From contig JAGFBZ010002039.1 of the NCBI GenBank assembly GCA_018398805.1, positions 186,001 to 250,000 of the forward strand: a DNA stretch of 64,000 nt. The letters run 5' to 3'. The notes under the pieces are model-generated. The model was not told the DNA's origin. It saw only the letters and a list, made by a program, of their open reading frames with translations, and ran no database searches. The stretch is from Hirundichthys speculiger (taxonomy: Eukaryota; Chordata; Actinopteri; Beloniformes; Exocoetidae). The first letter of the stretch is position 1, and each line of letters starts with the position of its first letter. The translations under genes were made by a program, and so were the position numbers. This document shows, piece after piece, positions 1,851-46,888 of this stretch.

Positions 1851-2080
1851 AAAACATCACAACATATGGACAGGAGTCAACGGTGCTTGGGTCAGCGCTA
1901 TAAGGGCCTGATTTACTAAGATCCTAAATAAAGAGTACTAAATTGCGTGTGCACTGAAAAAGTTTGTGCGTGCTGTTGTTGTGTGTTTTGCGGGTGATCA
2001 ACTAAGAATGCTCGCGCAATTGATAACGGGTGCAAACCGCAGTATTTAAATGAGGTGTTGCGTGTCTTACGGTTTGCGCC

Positions 2081-2443
2081 ATGGAGAGTCTGGATGGAAA
2101 GCAGGATAGACGCAAGCGCAAAATGAAATTTGACGAGTTGGAGTTAGAGATATTAGTGGAAGAGGCAAATAAACACATTCATGAACTACAGCAAAGAAAT
2201 TTAAACATTACCAAAAGAAACGCAATATGGGAGAAAATCTGCGATAGAATAAATGCAGTTGGTAAAACAAAAAGAATGGCAGATGAGGTTAAAAGAAGGT
2301 GGCAAGATATAAGACAAAGAACTAAAGAAAAAGTGGCCTTTAACAAGACAGGTGGAGGGCCTGCGGAAGAGATGCCTGCGGAAGAGATGCCTCTAACCAG
2401 CAGGTGCAGCTCACCTTCTGGAGCCAACTGCAGAACAAGGTAG
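2081..2443 (+). CDS. Harbinger Myb/SANT-like DNA-binding ORF, copy 1
   Basis: A 120-codon open frame begins MESLDGKQDRRKRKMKF. The pattern FDELELEILVEEANKH, then IWEKICDRINAVGKTKRMAD, then KRRWQDIRQRTKEK matches the trihelix Myb/SANT-like domain (Myb_DNA-bind_5 type) found in the accessory protein of Harbinger elements. In reconstructed Harbinger elements that protein binds the transposon ends and carries the transposase into the nucleus (family knowledge). The stop falls right after AACAAG|GTAGGC, a good splice donor, so the ORF is probably a first exon whose stop is intronic. A PAEEMP unit is repeated twice near the end. Expression is not shown. Confidence 0.8.
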   Translation: MESLDGKQDRRKRKMKFDELELEILVEEANKHIHELQQRNLNITKRNAIWEKICDRINAVGKTKRMADEVKRRWQDIRQRTKEKVAFNKTGGGPAEEMPAEEMPLTSRCSSPSGANCRTR

Positions 2444-2524
2444 GCGCACAATAAGAAACACTTTTTTCTCCATGAAAACACGTGATTTATTTATTATCAT
2501 AAATAAAAAAATGAATGTGCCTCC

Positions 2525-3388
2525 CAGTGTTTCCACTAGAAAAAATTGGCACCGGACAATGTGACCGGCAGGTTTTCAATTTACCGGACAAATATTTGAA
2601 ATTCCGCTCACATAGGCTATATGAATTTATTGAGGTTAAAAATAAATCATATGCAGTAGTACGATATCAATGCAAGTCATTTAATAGTGTTTTTATTAAA
2701 AAACAGGCTATTTCAAATAAAATAAGTCCCGTCAATTGACTCACGAGCGTAACTTAAAAAAATAAATAAATAAATATTGCGCTCTTGCGCTCTTCTGACT
2801 CCGCTGCGCTGTTAATGCGGTTCTGCAGAGGGAAACCTCTCTCTGCTGGCACACTGGAGACAGGGATCAGCAGGCTATCTGGGCCAGTTGAGCCACTCGG
2901 GGTAGATTTCACTGAAATCCCCGATGAGAACTTCACAGGCCGTTGAGAAGTTCAAGCCTCCATAACCGCGGAGCGCTGTCATTACGGAGATGCGTCTCTG
3001 CGCGCACCTGTGGCATCAATGAGTGGAGCTGTGGCTGGAGCCGACTCGTCCTCACACACTACTCATTTGTAAAAAAAAAGTATATGTTTTTTCATAAAAT
3101 CCATCCATCCATCCATCCATTAGCTTCCGCTTATCTGAAGTCGGGTCGCGGGGCCAGCAGCTTCAGCAGAGACGTCCAGATCCCCCGGCCGCTTCCACCA
3201 GCTCCTCTGGGAGAATCCCGAGGCGTTTTTCATAAAATGATGTGGAAATAACCCATTTTATTACAACTGAAATTGTGCTTGGGAGGAGTATTTTCACCGG
3301 ACATTTTGACCGGAGAGATTATAAAATCCCGGACTTCCGCATATTTTACCAGACAAAGTCCAGCAATTACCAGACAACGGAAACCCTG
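2525..3388. mobile_element. hAT element nested in Harbinger copy 1
   Basis: The ends are CAGTGTTTCC and GGAAACCCTG (inverted repeat with one mismatch), flanked by the 8-bp duplication GTGCCTCC (2517-2524 and 3389-3396). These are hAT characteristics. The interior has repeated ACCGGACA/GACCGG motifs near both ends and no intact transposase. A widespread teleost repeat fragment beginning with CATC units (3100-3225) lies inside it. Harbinger copy 2 has this site empty. Confidence 0.88.
3100..3225 (+). repeat. CATC microsatellite plus fragment of a widespread teleost repeat
   Basis: Five CATC units lead into sequence with CGGGTCGCGGGGCCAGCAGC and GGGAGAATCCCGAGGCG motifs, which I recognise as a repeat found throughout teleost genomes. 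The class is uncertain. It sits inside the nested hAT and is shared with the hAT in Harbinger copy 3 (46045-46152), so it was already present in their common source. Confidence 0.6.
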
Positions 3389-3555
3389 GTGCCTCCTGTG
3401 GCAACCTTTTGCTGAATAATACTCGATTTAACATTCAAATAAAATATTTCTCCTTTTGCATGTGCAAACAAATTTACACGAGTCCGAAAGACTCTCTCTC
3501 TGCGTATTCTTTGATTTTGGCGATGTCGCCTCCTTGCCACAATAACAGCAGCCAT
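3367..3555 (-). pseudogene. Harbinger transposase N-terminal stub, copy 1
   Basis: It starts MAAVIVARRRHRQ and continues RIRRERVFRTRVNLF, an arginine-rich start like that of Harbinger transposases. It then diverges through a deletion and runs into the nested hAT end. It converges with the Myb-like ORF. No catalytic DDE residues remain. Confidence 0.7.
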
Positions 3556-4758
3556 CGGTGCGTAATGCTGGGCACATTAGCACCTTCCTTTCGAACGTAC
3601 TAAATACAGACGCAATCACAATCCCCGCAATTACTTTCAGGGTTGGTAAATCTCATTGCGTGTGGTAAATGAACCTATTTGCATTTTCCCCTCCCAGTAT
3701 TTAGCGCTTTCTGGCGGGTACGCCCCATATTGATTATTCATCAGGGCAAAAGTGCTAAATGAACAGCGTGTGCTATTTTCCTCATTTGAGAGGCGCAGTC
3801 CTCTTTGCACGCGGTTAGTAGATCAGCTTGCACATTGGTTTGCGGGTGATGTCAAGTTTGCACACGTTTTTACGCACGCAAACCTTTAGTAAATCAGGCC
3901 CTAAGAGCGCTTCAATTTTAGCAGAAGAAAATATGATCACATAACCAAGCACAGTCAGTCACTCTTTTCAAGGACATTGACCCATCCAGGTGATATATAT
4001 CATTTCATTTGGATTCCATTCTATTTAGGGTTAAGTTTATTTTCTCTTTGGATCTTAAAGAGACTGTGAAATAAATATGGATGTTAAGAAAATGTTGAGA
4101 AAACACCAAGACTCAGGGTGTCTAGACTTTTGCAGGGTGCTTTATGTCCAGCCTGGAAGCTTAAAAACAGTGGAATTCACTCACACCACTATTATGTTTA
4201 TATTTAGTCATGATCCAAAAGTAGCTTTGGCAAACTACACTGACAAAGTAACAACACTGAGTCAAACATGCATTTTGCTGTTTGTAAGGTTTTTTTTTTC
4301 TGTTTACCTGGATAAAATTAATGTGTTGTAATGTAAATTGTCTCTTCTGATTTTGTGTGCACTGCTGCAACAAAAGACACACTTTCTGACAGGGATAATG
4401 ACTTTAAGACACCTGCAGGGGTCAAACCCATTGATGTTTTCTAATGAATTACATTAAAACTCAGGAAACAGCAGATTATAAAAACCAAGAAGAGTATAAA
4501 CTCTGTTTTGAATCCCAGTTGTCTCAGGAAACGCTTCTAGCGTAAAACCTGTGCCAGATCAATCATGAGGATCACACCGCTGTGATGCTGTAACCCCTAA
4601 CCCAGATTCCAGAAATGAGCGTGCCATTACTGGCACCAAGACATGATGTTAAACACAGTTCCAAGAATTATCCAGCTCACGAATTAACCTGCGGTTAGCA
4701 AAAACACATAATCATAATGTGTAATTTTTCCCTTCTCGAATTAATTTATCTTTCATTT

Positions 4759-5858
4759 TAGGGATGCACGATAACTGTTTTTTAAAACCGATACAGATAA
4801 CCGATAACTTTCAGCTCCTGAAGACCGATAACCAATAACACACACATATACCTAAGATCATTACATCAATACTATGAACAAAATCAAAAATAGTTTGGAC
4901 TCTTTAAATGAACAGATACTTATTTTTTCCATTGAAAAACTATTGGCAAGCCTCTCAAACATTTTCATAAAGCTATCCAAACAAACCTATTTGATATCTC
5001 ACATCAACTTAAATAGGTGCATGACTTGCTGATATAAAAAAAATAAAGGCTCCTTGAACTGATGGAAATACATGCATCAAAATTACAAACTGAAAAGGAT
5101 TTACATTTAAAAGATTTTGACTTGTGGTTCCATTTAAATTAATACCTTTAATTAAAGTCAATGAGGTTCAGGGATTTTTTTTTTTTTTTTTTTTTAATCT
5201 CATGGAAGCTTTAGATGAGAGAGATGAGGGGAGGGGAGAGGAGGGGAGGCGTGCTGATGGCTTGCGCACCTTAACATTAGCTCGCGTTAGCGCGATTTCA
5301 AAACTCCATGGAAGCGATTGTTATGTTGTAGGTGGCTGATCAGGTTTGACGTTTTAAGCTTGTGCTTGTGCTTCCCTCCTCGTATAATTAGCTTGGAGCA
5401 TTTGTCACAAATAACCACCAAACTATCTTCTTCTGAAACTTTAACGAAGTTCCATACCATCGCCGCCATGTTTGTTGTGATCAGCACGCTGTGCTGCAGG
5501 CTGCAGTCAAGGTCTAACGTAAATTCTGACGTTCCCTCTTTCAGCCTTTTCTATTTTTATTTTTTATTTTTTATGTGTAACATGAAGGGAGATACTGCAA
5601 ATATTGATTCAAGTTAGCAACTAATAAAATTATGACCGACTTAACAAGTTGTTTTCTAGCATGAGGGGGTATTCTTGATTTTCCTGATTGAGAAGTCGTT
5701 TCTCTGATTATGCTGATGTTACTTGACTCAGAGGGAGTGAGGCACTGCCGTGTTGACAAAAATATATATGTTATCAGGGCAATTTGTCGTGATATCGGAC
5801 TTATCGGAATGACGTCATAATTTCCTGTTATCGGCCCGATAGTTATCGTGCGCCCCTA
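4759..5858 (-). mobile_element. hAT element with BED-finger remnant
   Basis: The ends are TAGGGATGCACGATAAC and GTTATCGTGCGCCCCTA, flanked by the perfect 8-bp duplication TTTCATTT (4751-4758 and 5859-5866). At 1100 bp it is too short for a complete transposase. A minus-strand BED zinc-finger coding fragment remains (5487-5287). Parts of the same family recur at 29277-29373 and, inverted, at about 29999-30137. Confidence 0.9.
5287..5487 (-). pseudogene. BED zinc-finger fragment of hAT transposase
   Basis: The frame contains VWNFVKVSEEDS, CDKC, then LKTSNLISHLQHN and a later His: the aromatic and C2/H-type layout of a BED finger, the DNA-binding N-terminus of many hAT transposases. The rest of the transposase is missing. 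Confidence 0.75.
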
Positions 5859-5866
5859 TTTCATTT

Positions 5867-7153
5867 GACTGGAGACAGCACATCCTGTTTGCAGTCTCAG
5901 TACGAGGCTGTTCATTGATCTGGTCTTTGCTTTATCCAAGTGGTTTTCTGGCCAACTGTTGGGTCTGTTCTACTCTGTGCCTTCATCTCCATCTGCGTTT
6001 TTGGCGACTCAAGTGTATATACGTAGGTTTTCACGGGAAAACAGTCACAATTTCGAGTCCCATATTATTGCTATTACTGGGTTACTACATGGTGCAAATT
6101 TTCAACTTTTCCAAAACGTAATGGGTTTTTATAAAATTTCAAAACCTTTCCAAGCCTGGAAATTCCCATTTCAAATCCCATGACTTTTCCGTATTTTTTC
6201 AAACCATACTAACCCTGCAAAGAACATTGTCGATCCATAAAATGAAATTATCACAACACACCCATCATTTTTAACATCTTTTTTCCTCATTTTTCTTCTT
6301 ACTGGCTTCTCCTAGAACTGTATAATTCATGTGCTTATCAAAGACCTTGTACATTGGCACAAGTACACTATTGTGATAAGATTCTGCAAAAAATGGCCTC
6401 AACCAGCTTCTGAGAGTGGTGGGCACCAACATGGATAAATGTTTTCAGTGACTCATGAACATAGCAGTGATTTAAGTCATAGAGAATTGTCAAGTATCTG
6501 GTAAGAGTCTACTGTGTTGGTCACTTCCACATTTGTTAACTGAAGAGGCTGGTGGAAGAGACTTATCAAAAGTGAAATATAAGTGGGGAAAGAGAGCTGG
6601 AGAGAAGCAGCTATTAATTTGGTGTATTTTTTAGTTTAATTTACTGAAAAAGAAGGACACAAAACATACAAGTTGGCCAAAATTCAATATCTGATGGATG
6701 TAATCTTTGGGCTCAAGCAGCACTGCATTCAAACAGATATGATTCTGTAACGGAAATCACTGCGTGGGGTCACAGTTGCTGTGGTCTCTACAAATGCAGT
6801 TTTAAACAAAGAAGTCATATGTGAAAGAGATTGAGAAATACCATCATCTTCTCTGAGCCAAAGCTAATTTAAAATGGACAGAAGCAAAGTGGAAAACTGC
6901 AATTATCTTAGTTGATTTAAATTTGCAATTCTCTTTTTACACTATAGTTACAACTGTAGTCAACTGCATAAAGTTACTGTATCAACAATGACAGATAGCA
7001 CAGACTGCAGACTGTGTGCTCCACTGGCTTTGTTTTTTAGTCTCTTAACCTTTGTTAGCCTCAAAACACTGATCATGCTCAGCAGAATGATTCCATGTTA
7101 CGTGTTTCAAATGTCTTGGTACTTGTTGCTTTGAGTTTTTTCTGTCCTTAAAA
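5867..7153. other. Non-coding DNA, nothing recognised
   Basis: AT-rich sequence between two hAT elements, presumably UBE2F intron. No exon of the missing UBE2F C-terminus and no transposon end was recognised. Confidence 0.4.
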
Positions 7154-7161
7154 GACTAAAC

Positions 7162-7548
7162 CAGTGATTCCCAAATTGTGGGCCGCGGCCCCCTGGTGAG
7201 CTGTTGTGGTACTGCAGGTGGGCCGTGAGAGGTCATTAAAATTAAACAAATATGTTTTAAATTTTCAAACTTTTTAAAATAGGTTTTTAACTTCTGTAGA
7301 ATATTCATGACATGGTTTAAAAAAAAAACATCAAGAAGTATTAAAATAAGCCAGGTAAGTGTTATTTTACTGAAATCATAACTAAATATAACAAGTGTCA
7401 CCTTATTTGTTGACCCATTACATTAATATCGGAAGATAGCTTCTAGTCCTGAATGTTGATCACAGTTGTAATTAAAGGTTTTGGTGGGCCACGGAGATTT
7501 TTCTCATTTCAAATTGGGCCTCGGTATTCTGAAGTTTGGGAATGGCTG
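7162..7548. mobile_element. Short hAT (Charlie-like) MITE
   Basis: Starts CAGTGATTCCCAAATTGTGG and ends GTTTGGGAATGGCTG. The perfect 8-bp duplication GACTAAAC lies on both sides (7154-7161 and 7549-7556). The TTCCCAAA terminal motif and GGGCC-rich subterminal stretch are like those of Charlie-type hATs. At 387 bp it has no coding capacity. Confidence 0.88.
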
Positions 7549-8255
7549 GACTAAACTATTGACTTAACAAGGGTGAAAAACTTCTACATCACGCTCCCCA
7601 GAAGCTGGATTATAATAACATGCTTACTGATGGGAGAAAAAAAATCTCTATTCAGATTTATAAGTTGATGTATTTACTGGCCTTTCTCATTCTACACAGT
7701 TGAAAGCAGCCTCAGCTTTGTTGAAACTGGTACAAATATCACAATAACATTGGTTTTTGTTTTATTATCATTTTAAATGCTAAATCCTGGAACATCTCAT
7801 TTAACTTTCAAACGTTCCTCTGGATGCAGGAGAAAGCTCTACCATGATAAAAGCAACAAAAGCAAAGCGACAACATTTTAAAAAGCAATTAAACAAAGCA
7901 ACAAAATGAGCAGGCTGAGTGACGTGCACCAGTGGTGCTCTGGGCCATGCAGTCTTATTGCATCAAAACCACCCCCTGTTCTATGTTTGGTTATGACTGG
8001 AAAGCCCCAGGCAAGGCTATGTGAAAGTCTTCTTTTAACAGAAGGTGTGCCAGATACAGTCTGTCAGACAGACAAACAAAAAACAGGCTGTGAGATTTTA
8101 CTGGCTCTCAAACAAAAACAGACACTCTGGCTTGAGTCTGTGTAGAAAGTATGAATGGAAAAACAAAGGCAAAAGAGGTGAGCAGACAAATGCACACATA
8201 TCACAGTTTTTCTTTAAAAAAAAAAAAATTTAAGGGAAATTACTTGATTACTCAC

Positions 8256-8323
8256 CACCATATTATAGGCTTCAGGGACATCTATTTCAAACTGAAATCT
8301 TCCACTTTGGTAGTAACCCTCAT
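8256..8323 (-). CDS. ube2f: UBE2F coding exon 4
   Basis: A 68-nt exon between a TTTTTTCAG acceptor and a GTGAGTAA donor. It encodes (D)[14 protein letters not shown] then VPEAYNMV, the beta-strand block before the PPK of the E2 fold. It ends exactly on a codon, so the next exon should begin with PPK. No continuation was found between here and base 1. Confidence 0.94.
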
Positions 8324-10646: not shown

Positions 10647-10692
<46 letters not shown>

Positions 10693-19600: not shown

Positions 19601-22600
19601 CCAAAGCTTTCATTCTGATAAACAAGTGAACGAGTAGGCCACATGCACATTTGATGCACGGGAAGCGACAGGCTTGAAGTTTATTCATAAATGCATAAAT
19701 AAATCATTGAACCATAACCATTTGTAAAGAATGTTTTCTGAACAACTCCAAACTTGAATACAACAAACCTTATACAGAAAAATATGGAAACTACACGGTT
19801 TTTGTGTATTGAAATAATAAAAAAAGAGAAAATAACAATATTTATATAATTTCATGCAAAAATCCTAAAACTATTGGCTGTGGCCCCCTCAACTTCATAT
19901 TTTCTGCACACCCTTTGGAAGATCATTAGTATGTTGCTAATGGTATATTGTATACATTTAACTTAAAAAGAAACTTCAACAATAAGACTTGAATGGAATA
20001 TTATAATAATGTTGCCATTAGGTATATAGATGTAGCATTTAAAAAGATTTTAGATGTACAGTAATTGTTTTACCATGTTGCCTGTGTAAATTCTTTACAT
20101 TGCAATGTATTCTGGGTAGTCAATTAACTGACACAGCTGAGGTCTCTGCACTCTACAGTCGGACAAACATCACTTTTATTTAGCCTTTTCAGTTTGAACT
20201 TCAGTGCAGCAGTAGAGGTGAAAACAACACTGAAGGCATTCCTATAAAATACACACAATACAAAAAGGAAAAACCCCACATTAAATTTACAAAGACAGCT
20301 AAATTATAATAAAAAAAAATGAACACAACAACCATGAGGCAGAAGCGTGGTTTGGTGTTTAGCACTGTTGCCTCACTGGCTCAAATCTTGGCTGGGCCCA
20401 TTCTGGCGTTGATTTTCCACAGAGTACTCCAGTTTCCTCCAGCAGACTAAATACATGCTTGCTAGGTTAATGGGTGAGTGTGAGTACTGCTGCGCCAATG
20501 AAAACGTGATTTACCAGTGCTACTTCAGCCACACTTTTAAAGACTGGGAACATTTCTCCTGGGATCAATGGAGTTCAAATTTAAGATGATAATTCTCCAT
20601 ATCTCTAAGCATTCCCATCACCAGGAGCCAGGATCCCTCTGCTCCCTCCTGGGTCTTATACTTATCACAAACTCTGTGGCTTCCATTAGTAGGCCTCTTA
20701 CACACTGTGGGCATCGATAAAGCAAAATGATCTATGGTGTCAAGAGTCACAGATGATGACCATGTGAACTAAACCATTAAATGATTAATGCCTCACACTC
20801 AGCCCAACTAGACAGAGAGTCTACATCCGTCAAAATCATAGCTTTCAAATTTTTTGTCATTTTAAAAATAAATAAATTACAGGCCAATGATTGAAAATTT
20901 AGTTTAGCAAACCACATGGCTGAAGTTATTTCTTTTTCACACAATTGTGCCTTAGTCGTGCTGTTTTTGAATGTATGATTCCAGGTTTGAATGGCTTCGA
21001 ACAGCTTTAAGTTTAACAACCAGAATGTCATAGTGATAAAAAGATCTGGATGGAAAGTGCTGAAACTCAGACCAGTTATTCTTGGAGACAAATGACAAGA
21101 CAGACTGTTATTTGTGAATTAACACAAAGTCAGTGCATGTCAATTCAATTCTATTTTATTTGTATAGCATTTATTACAATACAAATCGTCTCTAGGTGCT
21201 TTTCAGAGGTCCCAGAGCATGACCCCCGAGCAAATATTATTAACTCTAAGTAACATAATTACATCTTAAATAAAGAAACAATGGCAAGAATAATTCCCCT
21301 TTAAGATGGAAGAAACCCTGAGCAGGCCCTGGATCATTTCCCCCGAAAATATATTGATTTTTTTTGTTTGTTTGTTTGTTTGTTTGTTTATTCTAATGTC
21401 AGCAGTTGAACACACTGAAATTGTTTAAATTAGTTTTTACTTCTGAGGAGAACTTCCCTGAATCATGTATATAATGTAAACAGTACTCTGTTTTACAGAA
21501 TACAGAATCCAGGTGGGAGAAAATAGGCATTCAGTTATTTTTTTATTTTTTTATTTTAAACAACAAGCAGCACCTGTGAGTTCATTTACTTGACAAGATG
21601 AAGAAGTATCAGTAGAGGATGGAACTGTAAACATTTAGGTAGCTTTATTTCCTCCTTTTGTTATTGTGGGAAAAGCCATGAAGACTCACATCAGACCCCT
21701 GCTGCTATGCAAATGATAACTTTGAGCAAAAGTGGCATTGATGTTTTCTTCACCGCTGACTAGCACAAGCTGCAGCAATACTGAAAAATTAACCATGAAG
21801 TGGTATGTCTGCTTCCACGAATAAATATGAATATATACAGGTACATGTGTAATCAAGACTGTTCTGATAAGTCTTGCTGGTGGGACTTTCATTGTTCCTG
21901 ATGCTCTTATTCATTTTAATGCACTAGTTGTAGGACAACAGGAAACTCAATGTATGACAACGGGAATCTCTAAGTGGGCCTTTCCAGAACAGGAAAGCCA
22001 GATTAGACTTTGCCAGAAATGTACTGGAAAACCAAAGATTTTTTGTGATTCACAAATGGAAAGCTGCCATGTGTTTGCCTCAGTCTAGGAGTTATGTGTA
22101 GTGTATATACACTAGGGATGTAACGATATGGAAAATTTGATCTCTCAATTATAGTGACCAAATTATCACGGTTTACGATGTTATCGCGGTATTCTTAATT
22201 GCTGTACAAATGTCCAAAAAAACACAGACATTAAAATAATTTCACATAATTCATAATTTCATTTCATTTATCAAATTGAAACTTTCACATTAAAAGGGCA
22301 AACAACTGGCACAGAGAGATATTATTTTTAATGAACAAAATAAATTACAGGAACAAAGCTTAATTGTTTGGTGCAGGTTTAAATAAACACTTAAACAACC
22401 ATAGTAGGTCAAAATATGCATTTGAAGTGTTACTGCCTTTCACAGCTACTTTTTTCTTGCATGCTCTGCAGACAGATTAATTGTCCTCCACCAGTTGTCC
22501 TTCTGCATTCTTAAAAAAAATAAAATAAAAATGCCCAGACCTCAGATTTTGATTTAGTGGGTTGGTAAATGTCCTGCTTGCTATCACCGCTTTCCGCCAT

Positions 22601-23639
22601 GCTTACATTACAATGCCGATGTTACAAGCTACATATTCACACAAGACACAGTCGTGAGTCACTCGCGAGACTTGAATGAGGCTGATATTACATATCCCGG
22701 TAATCAACCATGACAATGAGATGAAGTCCAACATATACAGTAATGATTATCGCGTAAAAGTTCACTGTGCTTTACCGTAATACCGGTAACCGTTCCATCC
22801 CTAATAAACACATTATTTTTGCCACATAAGTGAAGGTATCAAGAAGGTATTACATTTATATTGCATTGGGCTGAGGTAACATGAGACGTTGTGTACGGCA
22901 GGAAGGGAGGAGCAGGAAGTGGCCAGTAAAAGAACCTTCAGAGACTTATGTAAATCTACACCAGCGTGTTTGTGTTGTGTACTCGACAGGTTGCCCACTT
23001 AGCTTGGAATACTGCTGAGCGAGCAGCGTGCACTTCAGAATTAATGAAGGTTCTGTGGCAATGCAGAAATACAAAAAAAGCTCAAAGCACCATTCAAACA
23101 AACTATTTTAGGACACATGTAGAGCAACAGAAAAACTGCAAACACCTCCAGTTTTGCTCTCCATCACATAAGAATTCCCTCAATAGACAAATCCTGTAGA
23201 ATTCCATTAGATTTTGGTGGTATTTTTTTATTCTATACTTGTGATTTTAAAGTTTTAATTGTATTATTTATGTGATGATAAATGGTCAAATAAAGGTGGT
23301 AGAAAATACTAACACAAAAACATATCGGCAATATCTCACATGCAGAGAATCAAGGTATATAGCAACTACTGAAACTGACTTTTCTCTTAATCACATAACA
23401 AAGCAGTTATGTAAGTAACAGGGTAAGGTCTCTTTATCTTACCAGGAGACACTGCCAGCTGGAAATGATGCAGCTTATTCTCATCAGGGAAACTGGCTTT
23501 GCATGTATCTGCACACACAATGGTGGAGGGAACAGAGAGTGAAAGTTATCAGTTTTTAGGGTCAAAGGTTTGAGACAGAGGCATTTGTTTAAGGCTATAC
23601 AATGGCATCTTATTACATGCCTAAGTGGATTTTCAGGGA

Positions 23640-29276: not shown

Positions 29277-29373
29277 ATCAGAATGCACGATAACTATTTT
29301 TTAAAACCAATACAAATAACCGATAACTTTGAGCTCCTAAAGGCCGATACCAATAACCAATAACACACACATA
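29277..29373 (+). mobile_element. hAT left-end fragment (family of 4759-5858)
   Basis: GAATGCACGATAACTATTTT and CCGATAACTTTGAGCTCCTA match the left end at 4759. The match stops where a pogo-like element begins at TA|CAGTGATTCC. Confidence 0.7.
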
Positions 29374-30137: not shown

Positions 30138-30164
30138 ACAACAACCAATGAGTACCAGGTTGTT

Positions 30165-32485
30165 TTTGGTCCAAAAACACAAGCCTATCAATGGCGTCTG
30201 GTTTGAGAGATGCTCGATGGCATGCAACTATACTACCACTGATACTAAATACCCTTTCCGATGGGGAATTGGTGGCGGGCACACACAGATACTTTTTTGC
30301 TACAATTTACAGGTTTGGGAACATTTCCTCATGGTCTTTCCACCACTGCAAGTGATTTGCTTCACTGTCAACACTAACAGATTGCAAGTAGGCAGACAAC
30401 TCTTTTTTTAATACGCTCTCTCTGTGATAGTGTGGCAGAGGAAGTTGCTGCAGTTTTAAAGAAGCTTCCGAGTGATTTCTTCCTTAGTGGCTCTGCTGGC
30501 TGTGGTACTGTTGTTGCATCTTGAGGCAGTGAAGCAGCCAACTCAGCTGTGCCCTGGTCAGACTCAGATAGTGTTGCCTCCATCTTGGTTATGGGTCTGC
30601 TCTTGATGACCTTTTCTTCTGTGCAGTTTGTTGTCTTGAACCTGGGATCCACTAAGCCTGCCATGTCCAGCAGGTCGTTAGTGGAAGGATCAGAATATTT
30701 CTCCCTCAGGTAATCCAGGATGGAGGCTTTGATTGACTTGGTCAGTGGAGTGTCATCCTCATGACGAGCCAAGAGGCTGGACTGGAAGAGATGGAGCACA
30801 GGCTTCACATAGGACACTGTGACATAGCTCTCACTGGATAGAGCGTCAGTGAATTCCAGGAGGGGTTTGAGAGCCTTGTGCACTGACTCTAGGACTTCCA
30901 GGTCTTGCCAGGTGAGAACAAGATGCCAGGTTTTCTTGTCTGCAGCTAAAACTTGCGAAATGGCTTGCTCCTGCTCCAGTACCCGCTCAATCATCTTCTC
31001 TCGGGATCTCCACCTGGTAGGAGACTCACTGATCGGCAGGTGTGCAGGGAGATTCAGCTCTTGCTGCGCTGTGGCCAGGTCTCTCCTCCTCTTCCAACTG
31101 AAAGAGAAGCTGCTCACCACCTTCTTGCACACAGGAACAGCACGGTCAATACGGGGGTCCTTTATGCTTCTCTCTGAGAATGAAAACAAACATTTAAAAT
31201 GTAATAATAATTTAAAATGTTAAAGTAACTGTGAAGAAATCCACTCAGCCTAACATCAAAACTAATTTTGGTCATTCTTTTTCTTTATACAGTAATGTGT
31301 ACTGTAGAAGTGAAGATGCTTTATAAAATATATAAGTTTCAATTTCAAAATATAAAAAATTCACTATAAAGAACAGTCTATTTACTGACACATTAATGCA
31401 GAAAAAGAAAAAATTTACATGTAAGACAATATATATAAAAACTCTGTGCTAAGATGCACAGTAATGTACTTTTTTGAAAAATCACTCACTCTCACTGACT
31501 CACTCTCTCTCACACACACTTTGCCACTTTAATTGCATAGATATAACATTATCAAGTTCTCTGTGTTATGACCATGCAGTAGGGTGTTATAACATTGCTC
31601 ATAATGAAAATTATTATTATTTTATCATGGGTAAACACTCACCAATTGCAAGATGCAGGCGATGGCCAAAACACTGTAGACGTGTCCACTGGTTCAGGCT
31701 CACAGCTTTGATTATATTAGCGCCGTTATCGGTGGTGATGCACACCTGATGAGCTTCATTTAAGTTCCATGACATAAGAGCATCTTGCAGACCTTGTGTG
31801 ACGGTACCGCCAGTGAGATCCTCAGGCAGAAAGCTCGTCTGAAGGCACTTGCATTTTCAACTCCCAATTGTCGATGTAGTGGACCGTCAAACTGAGGTAA
31901 TGGCTCACACGTTCGGCTGCTCCACATATCGGCAGTTGTGGAGAAATGGGTCACATTTGTGAGCTGACTGGCCAGCTCTTCTCTCACTTTAATGTACAAC
32001 TCAGGCAGAGCTTTCTCTGCAAAGTATTTGCGACCCGGCAAATAATATCTTGGGTCAAGCGTGTTGATGAGCTTTCTGAACCCGGGCTTTTCAGCCACAC
32101 TAACTGGGGCCATGTCTTTCACTATGTGGTGGGTTACTGCGGACGTTTTTTCCCTCTGTTTCTGACTGTTTTTGTCGTACGGTGTTGATCTGGAAAGGGA
32201 AGACGCCAGACGCATTTGTGTGAATGCTGGTTGCTTCGGCATTTTCTTTGATATGGCACCAGCCGGAGATGTTGTGCGGAGTTTCAAGCACTCCTGATTT
32301 TGTAGCGGGTGGTTTTACAAATGATGATATAAATTAGTTGTACTGCTACCTTTTGTGGAGACGCTTTTACGACATATTTTGCACATCACCGTTGTTTGTT
32401 CAACATCTTCCTTCTTGAACCCAAACCACCGCCAGATGATGGATCCTGTGCTGTTTTTCTTTGGAATTAATTCATCCTCCTCCAT
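30165..32485 (-). pseudogene. BED-finger hAT transposase pseudogene (ZBED1-like), two exons
   Basis: From ATG at 32485 the frame shows a BED finger (IIWRWFGFKKED, CKIC, then TTNLYHHL) broken by a stop directly after HHL. Next come HHIVKDMAPVSVAEKPGFRK, LDPRYYLPGRKYF and TTADMWSSRT. Frameshifts follow near 31930 and 31830, then VCITTDNGANI and CFGHRLHLAIG. An intron with GT/AG sites (31645-31176) separates exon 2: ERSIKDPRIDRA to PTRWRSREKMIERVLEQEQA, then the C-terminal WWKDHEEMFPNL with a stop, and SPSERVFSISG. Part order is that of a full hAT transposase, but several breaks make it inactive. A hAT-like end GGCCCAGCCCT lies at 32760-32770; the other end was not found. Confidence 0.85.
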
Positions 32486-37328: not shown

Positions 37329-37912
37329 CAGTGGAGGAAATAAGTATTTGATCCCCCGCTGATTTTGGCAGTTGTCATACTAAGAAATAAATGAACAGTC
37401 TCAGATTTTTAATGGCAGCTTTATTTTAACAGTTATAGAAAGAATATTGAAAAAAAAATGAGAAAATTACATGAAATGATAAATAAAAATTAATTTGTAA
37501 GTCATTGAGGGAAATAAGTATTTGATCCCTGACCAACCTTGACCAGTGTTGGTTCCCATTGGCATACTCCTAATCTCACTGAAGTAATTACCTGCATGAG
37601 AGACACCTGTTCCAAATAGTCACCTGTATAAAAAGCCATCTGCCCACAGACTCAGTAATACTCCACCATCTCCACCATGGGCAAGACTAAAGAGCTGTCA
37701 AAAGATGTCAGGAACAAAGTTGTTGAACTCCACAAGGCTGGAATGGGCTACAAAACCATAAGTAAGAAGCTGAATGAGAAGGTGACAACTGATGGTGCAA
37801 TTATTTGGAAGTGGAAGAAGAACAACATGACTGTTAATCGACCTAGGCTGGGGGCTCCATGGAAGATATCACCTCGTGGGGTCTCAATGATCATGAGAAA
37901 GGTTAGAGATCA
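37329..37912 (+). mobile_element. Tc1-like element, 5' part
   Basis: CAGTGGAGGAAATAAGTATT follows TA (37327-37328). The unit GGAAATAAGTATTTGATCCC occurs at the outer end and again at about 37509, the paired-direct-repeat layout of Tc1 elements with long terminal repeats. A transposase start follows at 37677. The element is cut off near 37912, where LINE-tail-like sequence begins. Confidence 0.85.
37677..37912 (+). pseudogene. Tc1-like transposase N-terminus, truncated
   Basis: [20 protein letters not shown] and the following [10 protein letters not shown] motif are the paired helix-turn-helix DNA-binding region of fish Tc1 transposases (normally about 340 aa). After about 78 codons the similarity ends. 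The DDE catalytic domain is missing. Confidence 0.85.
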
Positions 37913-37914
37913 GC

Positions 37915-38062
37915 TGAGGAGCCTCAGTGCACTGCTGGCCCATGTCCTACTATGTTTTTCTGTTTCTTGTATGTTTATTGGACGATGTACTGAAATTAAT
38001 TTTGTTGTACTGGGACACTGGCTCAATTACAATAAAGTGATCTTGAATCTTGAATCTTGAAT
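37915..38062 (+). repeat. LINE-like 3' tail
   Basis: Sequence ending ATTACAATAAAGTGATC followed by three TTGAATC units looks like a LINE 3' end with its tandem tail. It abuts the truncated Tc1 element with no gap. Confidence 0.5.
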
Positions 38063-40274: not shown

Positions 40275-40900
40275 CAGAGGTGGGGACTCAAGTCTGTGAC
40301 TTAGAATCAAATCACACTTAATTAGTCCACACCAGTAACTTGAGACTTGATCTGTCATGGTTAGGGTTGGGCATCTTATGTTTTTCTTCTTTGTACTCTT
40401 AGTTTGGTCTGCTTTTCTTGAGTTCCTTGTGTTCTGTTTCCTGGTTTACTTTGAAGGTCTGTCTGTTCCTCGTTGTGTTCCACTTTACTTCCTTCTGTTC
40501 ATCTTCCTGATTGTTTGCACCTGCATCTCACTTGTTATATCTTGTCTTTTCCCCTCTTCCTTTCTGGTTTGTCTGTTGTTCCTCCCTTCTGGTTAGTCTG
40601 TTCATCTTTGCTGTCATCGTCCCATGTTCCTGGCTCCTGCGTTTCTCTTGTGTTTCTACCCTGTCCTTTTACCACCCCACCCCCCGAATACCTCAGCTAA
40701 GTTTTTATTTTCAAGTTTCAAGACGTTTCAAGAAGTTCTTGTTGGAAACTCCTGCCTCCTGACCTCCTGCAGTTTGCGTCCTTAACCTAAACCCTGGCAT
40801 GATCTAGACTTGCAATTTGAGACTTGTGAATTTTTCAGCATTTCAAGTTGCCACCGCGTTTTCCTGTCAAAATGCCATTCCTTTTTCTATCACCAGACAT
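40275..40900 (+). repeat. Dispersed teleost repeat split by an insertion
   Basis: GCAGAGGTGGGGACTCAAGT and CTTGAGACTTGATCT on the left, then AGACTTGCAATTTGAGACTT on the right of 40799, belong to a widespread 'GACTCGAGTC'-type fish repeat. A 446-bp insert separates them. Confidence 0.5.
40354..40799. mobile_element. Insert with terminal inverted repeat-like ends, class unknown
   Basis: Flanked by TGATCT on both sides (40348-40353 and 40800-40805). The ends GTCATGGTTAGGGTT and AACCTAAACCCTGGCA are partly inverted copies. The body is pyrimidine-rich and has no domain. Confidence 0.45.
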
Positions 40901-41657
40901 AGCCTTTTGCAGGCAATGCTGCAAATATTATTTCAAATCATATTATTTGATACACTCGTTCACAGTGCACATTGTGTTGCTTCCAGAGACATTAGAGATG
41001 GTTAGCTAACTTAATAACTGTTTAGCTACAACCTTCTAATACTAGCTGACGGCAAGTGTAAAAATGATCAGATGTTATTAACAGTAGCTACCGGAAGGCT
41101 ACTGATTTATTGTTGATCACATTATGGGCTTATGAGATTGCAAGAGGGATATTTATTAGATTATAAAATGTCCAGAGTTATGATAACACTGTGCATGCTT
41201 TAAACCGCTTAAATATAACAGTGATAGCATTACAGCAGTGCAACAGGTTTTAAGTGAACCCGTTGATTTCTAGGAGTTAATAAAATGTTAATTATAGTCA
41301 TAACAGACTTAGGGCCTGATTTACTAAAGGTTTGCATGCGTAAAAACGTGTGCAAACTTGACACCACCCGCAAACCAATGTGCAAGCTGATCTACTAACA
41401 GCGTGCAAAGAGGACTGCGCCTCTCAAATGAGCAAAATAGCACACGCTGTTCATTTAGTACTTTTGCTCTGATGAATAATCAATATGGGGCGTACCCGCC
41501 AGAAAGCGCTAAATACTGGGAGGGGAAAATGCAAATAGGTTCATTTACCACACGCAATGAGATTTACCAACCCTGAAAGTAATTGCGGGGATTGTGATTG
41601 CGTCTGTATTTAATACGTTCGAAAGGAAGGTGCTAATCTGCCCAGCATTACGCACCA

Positions 41658-41780
41658 ATGGCTGCTGTTATTGTGGCAAGGAGGCGACATCGCCAAAATC
41701 AAAGAATACGCAGAGAGAGAGTCTTTCGGACTCGTGTAAATTTGTTTGGAATGAATGAAAACCAGATAGTTGAAACTTAA
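41658..41780 (+). pseudogene. Harbinger transposase N-terminal stub, copy 2
   Basis: A 40-codon frame MAAVIVARRRHRQ, RIRRERVFRTRVNLF, GMNENQIVET and then TAA. This is the best-preserved stub. It aligns with the basic N-terminus of PIF/Harbinger transposases; the DDE nuclease domain is deleted. It is convergent with the Myb-like ORF. Confidence 0.7.
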
Positions 41781-42002
41781 GGGCTGATTTGGAGCCGGTC
41801 ACAAGCACATGCAAAAGGTGAAATATTTTATTTGAATGTTAAATCGAGTATTATTCAGCAAAAGGTTGCCACAGGAGGCACATTCATTTTTTTATTTGTG
41901 ATAATAAATAAATCACGTGTTTTCATGGAGAAAAAAGTGTTTCTTATTGTGCGCCTACCTTGTTCTGCAGTTGGCTCTAGCGTGTCAGACCCCGTATCCC
42001 TG

Positions 42003-42371
42003 TTATCTGCTCCTCGCAGAAGGTGAGCTGCACCTGCTGGTTAGAGGCATCTCCTCCGCAGGCATCTCTTCCGCAGGCCCTCCACCTGTCTTGTTTGCCG
42101 AAGTTTTATTAAAGGCCACTTTTTCTTTAGTTCTTCGCCTTATATCTTGCCACCTTCTTTTAACCTCATCTGCCTTTTTTTTTGTTTTACCAACTGCATT
42201 TATTCTATCGCAGATTTTCTCCCATTTTGCGTTTCTTTTGGTGATGTTTAAATTTCTTTGCTGTAGTTCATGAATGTGTTTATTTGCCTCTTCCACTAAT
42301 ATCTCTAACTCCAACTCGTCAAATTTCATTTTGCTCTTGCGTCTATCCTGCTTTCCATCCAGACTCTCCAT
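42003..42371 (-). CDS. Harbinger Myb/SANT-like DNA-binding ORF, copy 2
   Basis: A 122-codon open frame nearly identical to copy 1 over the Myb/SANT-like domain (FDELELEILVEEANKH, AKWEKICDRINAVGKTKKKA). It differs by an extra NKTSA segment before GGGPAEEMP and by a different C-terminus (SARSR), caused by a short insertion near the donor. The frame has not been broken. Confidence 0.8.
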   Translation of the reverse strand: MESLDGKQDRRKSKMKFDELELEILVEEANKHIHELQQRNLNITKRNAKWEKICDRINAVGKTKKKADEVKRRWQDIRRRTKEKVAFNKTSANKTGGGPAEEMPAEEMPLTSRCSSPSARSR

Positions 42372-42735
42372 GGCGCAAACCTTAAGACACGCAACACCTC
42401 ATTTAAATACTGCGGTTTGCACCCGTTATCAATTGCGCGAGCATTCTTAGTTGATCACCCGCAAAACACACAACAACAGCACGCGCAAACTTTTTCAGTG
42501 CACACGCAATTTAGTACTCTTTATTTAGGATCTTAGTAAATCAGGCCCTTAACGTGGACTTGCTAAAAATTACTTCTGAGATTGTCTGGTAGACAGTAAA
42601 AGTGGTAACGCATCCCCGCATCTCCCATCTCTTGCTCTCGTCAGCTACGCACAGAGGAGAGATCGTCAAAGTGAGTGTACCTTCCGTAGATTTTGCGTAC
42701 GGGCGTACATGGATACTGAATGTACATGTACATTC

Positions 42736-42805
42736 ACATCGCGGTTTTTCACCATTCGGGGGGGGGTCACAGCCCCCATTAACCGCAAAGTGTGGGGGAT
42801 TACTG
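42736..42805. mobile_element. pogo/Tigger-like right-end fragment
   Basis: GCGGTTTTTCACC, CCCCCATTAACCGC and GGGGGATTACTG followed by TA match the right end of 18126-18341. The left part was not identified. It lies just outside Harbinger copy 2. Confidence 0.65.
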
Positions 42806-44804
42806 TACAAGGAGAAGCCTTTAGCATCAGTGTCCAATGCAGCTGGTAAAGACTACACACAATTAACATTAAGAAGTGGTGAATTTTTAAATCAAATACA
42901 TTATTCTTAATATTAATAACAAAATAACAGCATAGGTTATGTTCTGAAGCCTTGCCAAAATGCAAGGTGAACTGATAGTTAACACGGAGTGGAAAAGAAA
43001 CCAAAAAAACAACTTTACACCACCTCTTCTGCAACCAACTTTTATTTACAGATTTTTCATACTTGCTTCAGTCCCACTGAGGGTCACAGACGAGCTGAGC
43101 TTATCCCAGCTGGTACCAGGGAATACACCCTGGACAGGTTGCCAGTTCATCTCAAGTCCAACCGTCTTATGAGGACTTGTTCTTTCTTTTTTAGATACAC
43201 ACCCCACAATGATGCTGGAGCATGTGCTGCTGGCATGTCTGACTGTGCAGGTAGTGTTTCAGGGCACTGGTGGAACCTTGGACTCCTTTTGTTTTTCTGA
43301 GTTTCTTCAGAGACACTAAGGGGTCCTAACCAACCCGCAGTGTTTGACACCCTGAAATTAAATTATTAATTACATGATTGACACCGCTCTTTATAAGTGA
43401 AAACACTCTCACGTGTATTTTTTTTGTATGTATCTTGGTATGTGTTTATGAGCACATTTGCATTGCATTTTGTAACTAATTTACATTCTGTTTTGAGTTG
43501 GACTGGATTGAGTTGCTAAAACAAACAGATTTTTCTACTATACCCCCAAAATGCTTCTTATCTTTCCTTTTTAGGCACTTTGACCCACTTCACATAATGA
43601 CTCTTAGCAGAACCTGGAAGCAGATTATTCATCAAAGGTTTAAATAGTCAAATTTGGCAGAAAATGTCAACCTTTTTTGCTTTGTTAAATATTTGACTAG
43701 CCACTTCAGGCATCACTTTGTAAATATCTATGGACCAGATGCTCCACAAATGTTGTTAAAATGACTTTGCTAAAGCTGTTTATCATCTAGATTGACTTTG
43801 AACAGTTATTGTTTGTTTAATATCTTGTTGGACTAGAGCACTAAGAAAACATGTAACATGTTCTCTCTCTTGTTAGATTTTCTATATGCTGATGATTTGC
43901 TAACTCCAAGTTAAACCTCTAGGGGTGATGGAAATTTCATGAGTTCTATTGGTATTTGGTCAAACTGTAAACCCGAGAATTTGACCAATTAGATTTTTTT
44001 TTTAAATAACCATGTGGTATTTGATTAAAAGCCAGCTGATCAACTCCGAAAATGTAGTTCTTTGATTTTTTTTTTCTCAGTCTCATTTTTACACTACTAG
44101 TTAGTGAAGTGATGTCTGTGTGCCAGCTGAGATCCAGCTGTGACTGCAGCAGCAGTGACAGAAGCCCAGTGGCTCCAGTCTTAATCATGTTAAAGCCAAG
44201 TGTTGCTCCTGAGGCTTTTCTCTCCCTGCTGCACCAAATGACCCAGATCTCTGACTTGTGTCTACTTAGTTTAAAGGAAAAAGTGTCTGCAAGTGCATGA
44301 CTAATACATTAGTCATCGCGATACGAAGCATGTTTGATCCTGCATGTTTTCAGTCCTGCTGCGCAGCTGTTGTTTCCATCTGTCAAGAAAATCAAGACAA
44401 ACGTTTGCAATTTTATTAGCATGCAAACGATAATTGAAATACAATATGAAAGTATTAAAAAGCTTTAATTTGATTATATAAAATCTGGATATAATACACT
44501 CCTTGTCAAGAAAGATGAATATTTTCAAAACTTTTTTCACATGAAAATATTGAAGGTGAGGAGGTATAAGTTATTTTTAGCTCAGATCTAGCGCAGATAA
44601 AGATGCACTTTTACTGAGGAGATTTAAACATCTAATCATTAGACGTATGACACACTCGCTGTGTGAGAGAACAGCTTGTCTGGTTTGAAGTCAGTCCATC
44701 TCATCCTGTCAGTGAGTTCCTGTCTGAGCCTGGCAGCAATCAAGTATAGCACAAATCGTATACACATCTAAAACAATAAAGATTAGGGCATCTCTTGAAC
44801 ATTC
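42806..44804. other. Intergenic DNA
   Basis: Apart from the fragment at 43072-43165 nothing was recognised. Poly(T) tracts occur near 43418 and 44070. Confidence 0.4.
43072..43165 (-). repeat. SINE-like repeat fragment
   Basis: GAGCTTATCCCAGCTGG, CACCCTGGACAGGTTGCCAG and TTCATC are characteristic of the repeat also seen at 56090-56345. Confidence 0.6.
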
Positions 44805-44868
44805 ATCAAATCAAATCAAATCAAATATACTTTATTGATCCCCCAAGGGGGAAATTCAAGTTTCAAGT
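44805..44868 (-). repeat. LINE-type tail (ATCAA)n
   Basis: Tandem ATCAA units followed by ACTTTATTGATCCCC and GGGGGAAATTCAAG, the reverse complement of a common teleost LINE 3' end. Harbinger copy 3 inserted right beside it. Confidence 0.6.
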
Positions 44869-45052
44869 ACACCTGGGGCCTGATTTACTAAGATCCTAAA
44901 TAAAGAGTACTAAATTGCGTGTGCACTGAAAAAGTTTGCGCGTGCTGTTGTTGTGTGTTTTGCGGGTGATCAACTAAGAATGCTCGCGCAATTGATAACG
45001 GGTGCAAACCGCAGTATTTAAATGAGGTGTTGCGTGTCTTACGGTTTGCACC

Positions 45053-45400
45053 ATGGAGAGTCTGGATGGAAAGCAGGATAGACGCAAGCGCAAAATGAAA
45101 TTTGACGAGTTGGAGTTAGAGATATTAGTGGAAGAGGCAAATAAACACATTCATGAACTAAAGCAAATAAATTTAAACATTACCAAAAGAAACGCAATAT
45201 GGGAGAAAATCTGCGATAGAATAAATGCAGTTGGTAAAACAAAAAGAACGGCAGATGAGGTTAAAAGAAGGTGGCAAGATATAAGGCGAAGACCTAAAGA
45301 AAAAGTGGCCTTTAACAAGACAGGTGGAGGGCCTGCGGAAGAGATGCCTCTAACCAGCAGGTGCAGCTCACCTTCTGGAGCCAACTGCAGAACAAGGTAG
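45053..45400 (+). CDS. Harbinger Myb/SANT-like DNA-binding ORF, copy 3
   Basis: A 115-codon open frame. It is five codons shorter than copy 1 because one 15-bp PAEEM unit is missing in frame. The domain core is intact (FDELELEILVEEANKH, IWEKICDRINAVGKTKRTAD). It ends at the same putative donor AACAAG|GTAGGC. Confidence 0.8.
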   Translation: MESLDGKQDRRKRKMKFDELELEILVEEANKHIHELKQINLNITKRNAIWEKICDRINAVGKTKRTADEVKRRWQDIRRRPKEKVAFNKTGGGPAEEMPLTSRCSSPSGANCRTR

Positions 45401-45481
45401 GCGCACAATAAGAAACACTTTTTTCTCCATGAAAACACGTGATTTATTTATTATCACAAATAAAAAAATGAATGTGCCTCC

Positions 45482-46315
45482 CAGTGTTCCACTAGAAAAA
45501 ATTGGCACCGGACAATGTGACCGGCAGGTTTTCAATTTACCGGACAAATGTTTGAAATTCCGCTCACATAGGCTATATGAATTTACTGAGGTTAAAAATA
45601 AATCATATGCAGTAGTACGATATCAATGCAAGTCATTTAATAGTGTTTTTATTAAAAAACAGGCTATTTCAAATAAAATAAGTCCCGTCAATTGACTCAC
45701 GAGCGTAACTTAAAAAAATAAATAAATAAATATGCTTGCGCTCTTCTGACTCCGCTGCGCTGTTCTGCAGAGGGAAACCTCTCTCTGCTGGCACACTGGA
45801 GACAGGGATCAGCAGGCTATCTGGGCCAGTTGAGCCCACTCGGGGTAGATTTCACTTAAATCCCCGATGAGAACTTCACAGGCCGTTGAGAAGTTCAAGC
45901 CTCCATAACCGCGGAGCGCTGTCATTACGGAGATGCGTCTCTGCGCGCACCTGTGGCATCAATGGGTGGAGCTGTGGCTGGAGCCCACTCGTCATCACAC
46001 ACTACTCATTTGTAAAAAAAAAAGTATATGTTTTTTCATAAAATCCATCCATCAGCTTCCGCTTATCCGAAGTCGGGTCGCGGGGCCAGCAGCTTCAGAG
46101 GTCCAGATCCCCCGGCCGCTTCCACCAGCTCCTCTGGGAGAATCCCGAGGCGTTTTTCATAAAATGATGTGGAAATAACCCATTTTATTACAACTGAAAT
46201 TGTGCTTGGGAGGAGTATTTTCACCGGACATTTTGACCGGAGAGATTATAAAATCCCGGACTTCCGCATATTTTACCAGACAAAGTCCAGCAATTACCAG
46301 ACAACGGAAACCCTG
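45482..46315. mobile_element. hAT element nested in Harbinger copy 3
   Basis: Same 8-bp duplication GTGCCTCC (45474-45481 and 46316-46323) and same internal sequence as 2525-3388, apart from small indels (a shorter CATC run, a missing T in the left end). The identical insertion point shows descent from one insertion. Confidence 0.88.
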
Positions 46316-46416
46316 GTGCCTCCTGTGGCAACCTTTTGCTGAATAATACTCGATTTAACATTCAAATAAAATATTTCTCCTTTTGCATGTGCTTGTGACC
46401 GGCTCCAAATCAGCCC

Positions 46417-46539
46417 TTAAGTTTCAACTATCTGGTTTTCATTCATTCCAAACAAATTTACACGAGTCCGAAAGACTCTCTCTCTGCGTATTCTTTGATT
46501 TTGGCGATGTCGCCTCCTTGCCACAATAACAGCAGCCAT
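46417..46539 (-). pseudogene. Harbinger transposase N-terminal stub, copy 3
   Basis: The same 40-codon frame as copy 2 (MAAVIVARRRHRQ to NENQIVET, then stop). The catalytic domain is absent. Confidence 0.7.
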
Positions 46540-46888
46540 CGGTGCGTAATGCTGGACAGAATAGCACCTTCCTTTCGAACGTACTAAATACAGACGCAAA
46601 CACAATCCCCGCAATTACTTTCAGGGTTGGTAAATCTCATTGCGTGTGGTAAATGGACCTATTTGCATTTTCCCCTCCCAGTATTTTGCGCTTTCTGGCG
46701 GGTACGCCCCATATTGATTATTCATCAGGGCAAAAGTGCTAAATGAACAGCGTGTGCTATTTTGCTCATTTGAGAGGCGCAGTCCTCTTTGCACGCTGTT
46801 AGTAGATCAGCTTGCACATTGGTTTGCGGGTGGTGTCAAGTTTGCACACGTTTTTACGCACGCAAACCTTTAGTAAATCAGGCCCCTG

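What the first reader, a model, noticed from the sequence alone, without database searches (positions are those of the whole stretch)
1904..46885. A hAT-inside-Harbinger composite spread as one unit, with the empty site preserved 4-40 kb away
Three Harbinger copies share termini and coding remnants. Copies 1 and 3 carry the same hAT at the same internal base with the same GTGCCTCC duplication; copy 2 shows that site unfilled. So the hAT landed in a Harbinger element once, and the composite was then mobilised by Harbinger machinery (each copy has its own 3-bp duplication: TAA, TTA, CTG). Private changes (a ~60-bp deletion in copy 1, an extra ~35 bp in copy 2, loss of a 15-bp unit in copy 3) confirm independent histories. 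Amplification of a nested element in trans is rarely seen so cleanly in one window.
Basis: partly seen in the sequence, partly recalled or inferred. Interest (0 to 1): 0.8.

Follow-up and report, generated by a model that had tools for sequence, protein, structure and literature searches.

The report
Mobile Harbinger carrying a hAT inside
In what looks like a fish genome, one jumping gene landed inside another and the pair then spread as a single unit to hundreds of places, and the same thing happened a second time at a different spot.

Summary
Copies 1 (1904-3901) and 3 (44876-46885) are Harbinger-type elements with a hAT at the same base (8-bp duplication GTGCCTCC); copy 2 (41312-42548) is unfilled there. 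Each has its own 3-bp duplication.

Genome-wide this is a large family: 506 exact filled junctions and 607 exact unfilled sites, with 0 in reversed-pattern controls. Only 2 unfilled sites carry extra bases. The 46 elements tested have exact, varied 3-bp duplications; 200-bp flanks of the three window copies match no other copy.

Three corrections. (1) The '60-bp deletion' is not private: 55 of 56 callable filled copies have it; copy 3 is the exception, a possible mosaic. (2) The hAT itself carries a LINE-like tail, in 54 of 55 filled copies checked: three levels. (3) A related LINE-bearing hAT entered the same Harbinger family again, about 100 bp away and inverted (one copy read), and that composite also spread: 35 left and 37 right exact junctions.

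The mechanism, transposase supplied in trans, is inferred. Ordinary in kind, unusually clear in scale and replication.

The parts
1904..3901 (+). Copy 1 (W1): Harbinger-type element filled at site A (composite A); 3-bp duplication TAA at 1901-1903 and 3902-3904
2081..2443 (+). Myb/SANT-like coding remnant (PF13873, E 3e-15), frame still open
   Evidence: no sign of purifying selection across copies
2517..2524 (+). Left 8-bp hAT duplication GTGCCTCC (site A)
2525..3388 (+). Non-autonomous hAT, ends CAGTGTTTCC / GGAAACCCTG, 864 bp
3101..3225 (.). LINE-like 3' tail with (ATCC)n inside the hAT, between 13-bp duplications TTTTTCATAAAAT at 3088-3100 and 3226-3238; called LINE-like from recall only
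   Evidence: present in 54 of 55 filled copies
3389..3396 (+). Right 8-bp hAT duplication GTGCCTCC
41312..42548 (-). Copy 2 (W2): same Harbinger, unfilled; 3-bp duplication TTA at 41309-41311 and 42549-42551 (plus strand)
41874..41881 (-). Unfilled site A, single GTGCCTCC
41749..41805 (-). 57-bp segment missing from 55 of 56 callable composite-A copies; holds site B
41775..41782 (-). Site B target CCTTAAGT, unfilled here; filled by an inverted hAT in composite B elsewhere in the genome
41978..42016 (-). 39-bp segment present in all 13 unfilled copies read, absent from 54 of 57 filled copies
42096..42110 (-). 15-bp segment present in all 13 unfilled copies read, absent from 40 of 57 filled copies
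42003..42371 (-). Myb-like remnant of copy 2
41658..41777 (+). 40-aa frame resembling a Harbinger transposase N-terminus by recall only; not confirmed
   Evidence: searches found no match
44876..46885 (+). Copy 3 (W3): composite A, 3-bp duplication CTG at 44873-44875 and 46886-46888; keeps the 57 bp (46392-46448, identical to copy 2), unlike the 55 other callable filled copies
45482..46315 (+). hAT in copy 3 (834 bp) between GTGCCTCC at 45474-45481 and 46316-46323

Best explanation
A non-autonomous PIF/Harbinger-type family (about 1.24 kb, 16-bp terminal repeats, a decayed Myb-like exon) received a LINE-bearing non-autonomous hAT at site A. The Harbinger ends stayed intact, so Harbinger transposase (and Myb-like partner) made elsewhere in the genome could move the whole 2.0-kb nest by cut-and-paste. 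Each landing made a new 3-bp duplication, while the internal 8-bp hAT duplication was inherited. The same kind of capture happened again at site B, in inverse orientation. Shown: structures, duplications, junction counts, non-homologous flanks of the window copies. Inferred: transposase in trans, and the order LINE into hAT, then hAT into Harbinger.
For: Exact 3-bp duplications of varied sequence in 46 of 46 elements (44 filled, W2, L029), and a palindromic target ACWC-NNN-GWGT (C at -1 in 39 of 46, G at +1 in 37 of 46). 506 exact filled and 607 exact unfilled site-A matches. Near-identical filled copies at unrelated places: W1, L002, L003, L004 and L030 form a clade (98) with duplications TAA, CTG, ATA, TTA, ATA and different flanks. 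One-clade model for filled copies not rejected. L029 lost the hAT with a scar and sits with two filled copies at 98. Composite B, one copy read: clean site A, inverted hAT with 8-bp duplication CCTTAAGT/CCTCAAGT; 35 left and 37 right exact junctions, 30 of 35 paired, median spacing 953 bp; the changed CCTC copy is in 35 of 37 right junctions, so it was inherited. LINE-free hATs: 221 matches; 0 of the 31 comparable ones lie within 1 kb of a listed composite junction. DDE_Tnp_4 matches in this genome: 150 scored, many without stops. Superfamily behaviour (two proteins, usually precise excision, extended target preference, 15 bp in vertebrates): PMC2836001, passages seen.
Against: PF13359 is not specific to Harbinger; it also rang in 1 of 14 control genomes. 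The 16-bp terminal repeats are shorter than the usual 25-50 bp given in PMC9179366. Filled and unfilled copies are not cleanly separated on the arm tree (8-9 changes against a shuffled mean of 12-13; 3 of 66 inner branches starred). Four of 12 extra unfilled copies lack an exact 3-bp duplication. L012 and L027 share 22 and 18 bp of flank right at the element ends, then diverge, as for insertion into copies of one short repeat.
Confidence: 0.92

Rival explanations
1. Segmental duplication copied the filled element together with its surroundings.
For: Copies 1 and 3 lie on one contig 43 kb apart. L012 and L027 share about 20 bp of flank on each side.
Against: The repeats between window copies end at or within a few bases of the terminal repeats. 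Flanks of W1-W3 match no other. 46 of 46 elements carry exact 3-bp duplications of varied sequence.
Confidence: 0.02
2. The hAT spread between Harbinger copies by gene conversion, so filled copies are older insertions converted in place.
For: Variants are shared in conflicting sets: four-gamete pairs 883 of 1326, r2 falls with distance. Copy 3 mixes a retained 57 bp with the derived 39- and 15-bp losses, and copy 2 lies inverted 2.3 kb away. The 57- and 39-bp markers lie only 68 and 96 bp from site A, so a tract carrying the hAT could carry them too and they do not argue against this.
Against: The distance decay weakens without one repeat block (p 0.044 for trend, 0.004 for short range) and is not seen with transversions only (p 0.91 and 0.087), so recurrent mutation could explain part. 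Clades of filled copies alike over both arms sit at unrelated loci (W1 group, 98). Filled copies as one clade fit at least as well.
Confidence: 0.08
3. Unfilled copies are filled ones that lost the hAT.
For: L029 shows that this happened at least once.
Against: 605 of 607 unfilled exact matches have no extra bases; 2 do. The 13 unfilled copies read keep the 57-, 39- and 15-bp segments that most filled copies lack, though they were chosen by similarity to copy 2.
Confidence: 0.03
4. The hAT at site B jumped from a composite A copy rather than from a free hAT.
For: The site-B hAT has the same LINE insert; 17 of its 26 differences from the site-A consensus are also found in some site-A copies. 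hAT loss from site A occurred.
Against: It is further from site-A hATs (3.46%) than they are from each other (1.98%), from one site-B copy only.
Confidence: 0.35

Closest known systems
Teleost Harbinger transposons (PMC9179366; abstract and passages seen)
   Same: Myb-like gene partner, 3-bp target duplication
   Different: Copies here are non-autonomous, with 16-bp repeats, and carry a hAT as cargo
mPing/Ping/Pong of rice (PIF/Harbinger; PMC2836001 and PMC10288884, passages seen)
   Same: Short element moved in trans by two proteins, extended target preference
   Different: No nested cargo described in the passages. Yeast tests there report that larger elements excise and insert less, yet here exact filled (506) and unfilled (607) junction counts are similar
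Zebrafish Harbinger3N_DR (as described in passages of PMC2836001)
   Same: Vertebrate non-autonomous Harbinger moved by Myb-like ORF1 protein plus transposase; 15-bp target preference in vertebrates
   Different: Different family; a hAT inside is not mentioned in the passages. The CWG-type target of Harbinger3 is recalled, not looked up
Nested MITEs and composite repeat entries in general (recalled)
   Same: One element inside another, later amplified as one unit
   Different: Here the empty parent, an excision scar and a second capture are all countable in one genome

Membership tests
PIF/Harbinger | 3-bp target-site duplication | tested here: met
   46 of 46 elements exact; 8 of 12 further unfilled copies exact
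PIF/Harbinger | Myb/SANT-like partner gene | tested here: met
   PF13873 E 3e-15, as a decayed remnant; 18 protein relatives, 12 of them labelled PF13873
PIF/Harbinger | Extended target preference | tested here: met
   ACWC-NNN-GWGT, palindromic, over 46 sites
PIF/Harbinger | Terminal inverted repeats, usually 25-50 bp | tested here: inconclusive
   16 bp perfect, then divergence, in 3 of 3 window copies; the source says 'usually'
PIF/Harbinger | DDE_Tnp_4 transposase with the same ends | tested here: inconclusive
   No such frame seen in the copies; 40-aa fragment without match; transposase matches exist in the genome but their ends could not be read
hAT | 8-bp duplication | tested here: met
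   GTGCCTCC twice at site A in both window composites; CCTTAAGT/CCTCAAGT, one mismatch, at site B; right copy CCTTAAGT in 2 of 37 right junctions
hAT | Short CAG...CTG terminal repeats | tested here: met
   CAGTGTTTCC against CAGGGTTTCC, 9 of 10
hAT | hAT transposase | not tested
   No frame of 120 aa or more in the 864-bp copy; an autonomous source was not searched for

The most novel reading that the evidence does not exclude
The same LINE-bearing hAT line entered one Harbinger family twice, at two sites and in opposite orientations, and both three-level nests became mobile families (506 and 35-37 exact junctions). In this genome that LINE-bearing hAT line would then be carried mainly by Harbinger's machinery, and cargo that enlarged the element by about 60% did not stop it from nearly reaching the copy number of its empty parent.
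Probability: 0.6. Interest if true: 0.58.

Novelty: new member of a known kind. Interest (0 to 1): 0.45.

Why it matters
It shows in one genome, with counts, that a parasite inside a transposon can ride to hundreds of copies on its host's ends, and that this happened twice in the same family. It gives a natural test of how cargo size affects Harbinger spread: filled and unfilled copies of one family with closely similar arms (mean difference 1.8%) can be compared by age and number. Laboratory work says larger PIF/Harbinger elements move less (PMC10288884, passages seen).

Tried and rejected
A functional Myb gene kept by selection in the composites was rejected. The frame is open through the domain in 47 of 71 copies, but among 53 copies of equal length non-synonymous to synonymous variants are 37 to 11, close to the neutral expectation 0.712 to 0.232, and a stop segregates in 10 (the script's reading began one codon before the ATG, so at least one of the 37 lies outside the gene). 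Segmental duplication was rejected for the window copies. Exchange among copies was left open: supported with all sites, weak or absent in controls. A link to a Harbinger transposase through the 40-aa fragment led nowhere, as did a PDB search with the Myb remnant. Rfam at gathering scores and a tRNA scan of the window gave 0. One search used a pattern with a stray N, gave 0 and is uninformative. Paper searches gave listings; no listed title names a hAT-in-Harbinger composite, but most subscription journals are not held, and I saw only parts of three papers (PMC9179366 abstract and passages; PMC10288884 and PMC2836001 passages).

Sampling limits: only the best 40 of 1253, 1297 and 872 candidates were scored. 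Filled copies were picked by similarity to copy 1, unfilled ones by similarity to copy 2 over a query that includes the 57- and 39-bp segments, so their presence in all 13 unfilled copies is partly by selection. 12 of the 40 unfilled hits were fetched, besides copy 2 itself. Of the 60 loci were second views, L001 is copy 1, and L006, L008 and L046 were not extracted; 43 remained plus the three window copies. In L009 one of two possible left ends was kept. From, three loci were repeats, L077 showed one end only, L070b (a strand duplicate) was dropped, and new elements had to have equal 3-bp duplications, so they are not counted as evidence for them. L076 and L057 (extra inserts) were left out of the arm alignment. 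The 607 unfilled site-A matches include copies filled at site B.
Full report
What is there. The window is 64 kb of an unnamed 1.04-Gb assembly (contig C2039). A predicted protein of Epinephelus coioides among the Myb relatives (61% identity, E 6.8e-15) suggests a teleost, but the organism is not given. Three elements share a 16-bp perfect terminal repeat GGGCCTGATTTACTAA: W1 1904-3901, W2 41312-42548 on the minus strand, W3 44876-46885. Their 3-bp duplications are TAA, TTA and CTG. W1 and W3 contain a hAT with ends CAGTGTTTCC and GGAAACCCTG (one T fewer at the left end of W3) between two GTGCCTCC copies; W2 has GTGCCTCC once. It is in 54 of 55 filled copies checked; the exception, L022, has a larger deletion there.

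Scale. The left arm and the left hAT junction drew 1253 and 1297 first-look candidates, of which the best 40 each were scored. Exact-pattern counts over the whole genome are: unfilled site A with 0-12 extra bases, 607; filled right junction, 506; reversed controls 0 in both. Mutated junctions are missed, so these are lower bounds. The 607 include copies that are filled at site B (below).

Transposition, not duplication. In 46 elements (W1-W3 and 43 others; 44 filled, W2 and L029) both 3-bp duplications agree in 46 of 46. Pooled by strand they are TAA 12, ATA 11, CAA 6, AAA 4, AGA, TCA and CTA 3 each, CAG 2, AAG 1, ACT 1. The target is palindromic, ACWC-NNN-GWGT. Of 92 flanks of 200 bp compared, no match links W1, W2 or W3 to any other copy. 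Matches between other copies were L007/L030, L011/L059, L012/L043 and L012/L027, plus two within one copy; L012 and L027 share 22 and 18 bp directly at the ends and then diverge, as for insertion into copies of one short repeat. PIF/Harbinger elements are reported to need two proteins, to excise usually precisely and to show an extended target preference, 15 bp in vertebrates (PMC2836001, passages).

What the differences between copies mean. The 57-bp deletion of W1 is present in 55 of 56 callable filled copies; W3 alone keeps the segment and L059 could not be called. Of 57 filled copies, 3 keep the 39-bp and 15-bp segments, 14 keep the 15 bp only, 40 keep neither. All 13 unfilled copies read keep all three, partly by how they were chosen. 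This suggests an order: hAT in, 57 bp lost, 39 bp lost, 15 bp lost. W3 does not fit it: it has lost 39 and 15 but keeps 57, identical to W2's. Its left arm is closest to late composites (0.33% from L009), and in its right arm two markers are of the filled type and one of the commoner unfilled type. A short conversion from an unfilled copy, perhaps W2 lying inverted 2.3 kb away, is the simplest guess. It is not shown; a composite line that never lost the 57 bp is also possible.

Single origin at site A. On an arm-only tree (1108 columns, 69 copies) the labels filled and unfilled need 9 and 8 changes against shuffled means of 13.1 and 12.1, with 3 of 66 inner branches starred. The best tree with the 55 filled copies and L029 held together is better by 4.51 log units, p-AU 0.568. 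So one origin is compatible with the data, though the tree is weak. Together with one identical insertion base and duplication, one landing is the economical reading. That filled units themselves moved is clearest in the W1 group: W1, L002, L003, L004 and L030 form a clade (98) at loci with different flanks and duplications.

hAT loss is rare. L029 lacks the hAT, has the composite's 57-bp deletion, groups with filled L047 and L049 at 98, and reads GTGCC-AC-TGCCTCC at the site. That is what a hAT excision scar looks like. Only one other exact unfilled match in the genome has extra bases. The other 605 are therefore most likely never-filled parents.

A second capture. Searching the hAT right end followed by a base other than G gave 75 matches, 72 of them followed by A. 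Comparing the lists by eye, on contigs up to C232 7 of 13 lay about 110 bp from a clean site A on the other strand. Reading one (L090 and L091 on C47) shows a clean GTGCCTCC and, inside the 57-bp segment, the hAT with the same LINE insert (rearranged and longer) in inverse orientation, flanked by CCTTAAGT and CCTCAAGT. Exact left junctions number 35 and right junctions 37; 30 of 35 pair in order and strand, median 953 bp apart. Of 7 left junctions on contigs up to C232, 6 have an exact clean site A within 200 bp; the one on C74 does not. The changed duplication CCTCAAGT is in 35 of 37 right junctions and the original in 2, which marks descent from one insertion. Only one B copy was read through, and about 40 of the 75 right ends are not exact B junctions: they may be mutated B copies or free hATs. 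The 57-bp deletion of composite A removes the place where B sits, so those copies cannot be its descendants or hosts.

Order of nesting. A hAT pattern without the LINE matches 221 places within 2 mismatches. Among the 31 exact ones listed on contigs up to C264, none lies within 1 kb of a listed composite junction. So LINE-free hATs live outside the composites, and the LINE probably entered a hAT before or soon after that hAT entered Harbinger.

Who moves it. The copies hold a decayed Myb exon (PF13873), with no sign of coding constraint. The genome holds many DDE_Tnp_4 transposase matches (150 scored of 390 candidates; 1 of 14 control genomes also rang), so a source in trans is plausible, but none could be tied to these ends.

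Verdict. The finding is real and its main interpretation is right. It is a new example of nested transposons spreading as one unit. Its value lies in the clean counts, the excision scar and the second, separate capture.

Noticed in passing
G000:C47:506590-507760 (L090, L091): Second hAT insertion (site B) in the same Harbinger family, inverse orientation, also amplified (35 left, 37 right exact junctions).
   Followed up: partly
L029 (G000:C2341:1091463-1091493): Scar GTGCC-AC-TGCCTCC where the hAT left a composite copy.
   Followed up: yes
L076 (G000:C103:767000-772000) and L057: Composite copies with further inserts: L076 has extra DNA plus a partial duplication, with two right junctions listed there; L057 has about 860 bp of extra DNA near position 408.
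   Followed up: partly
G000:C344:4602819-4603908 and C1591:2136424-2137644: Two hAT right ends facing outward about 1.1-1.2 kb apart, as in inverted or foldback arrangements.
   Followed up: no
window 22113-23208 and 50507-52416: Another dispersed repeat pair, 87-99% alike, not classified.
   Followed up: no
window 30374-32287 (minus strand): Two open frames (271 and 175 aa) that look like a decayed hAT-type transposase by eye; not searched.
   Followed up: no
window 49134-49489 and 57864-58205: Inverted repeat pair, 87-88% complementary, 8.4-8.6 kb apart.
   Followed up: no
55 filled copies: Conflicting shared variants among copies hint at exchange between copies; controls weaken the case.
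   Followed up: partly
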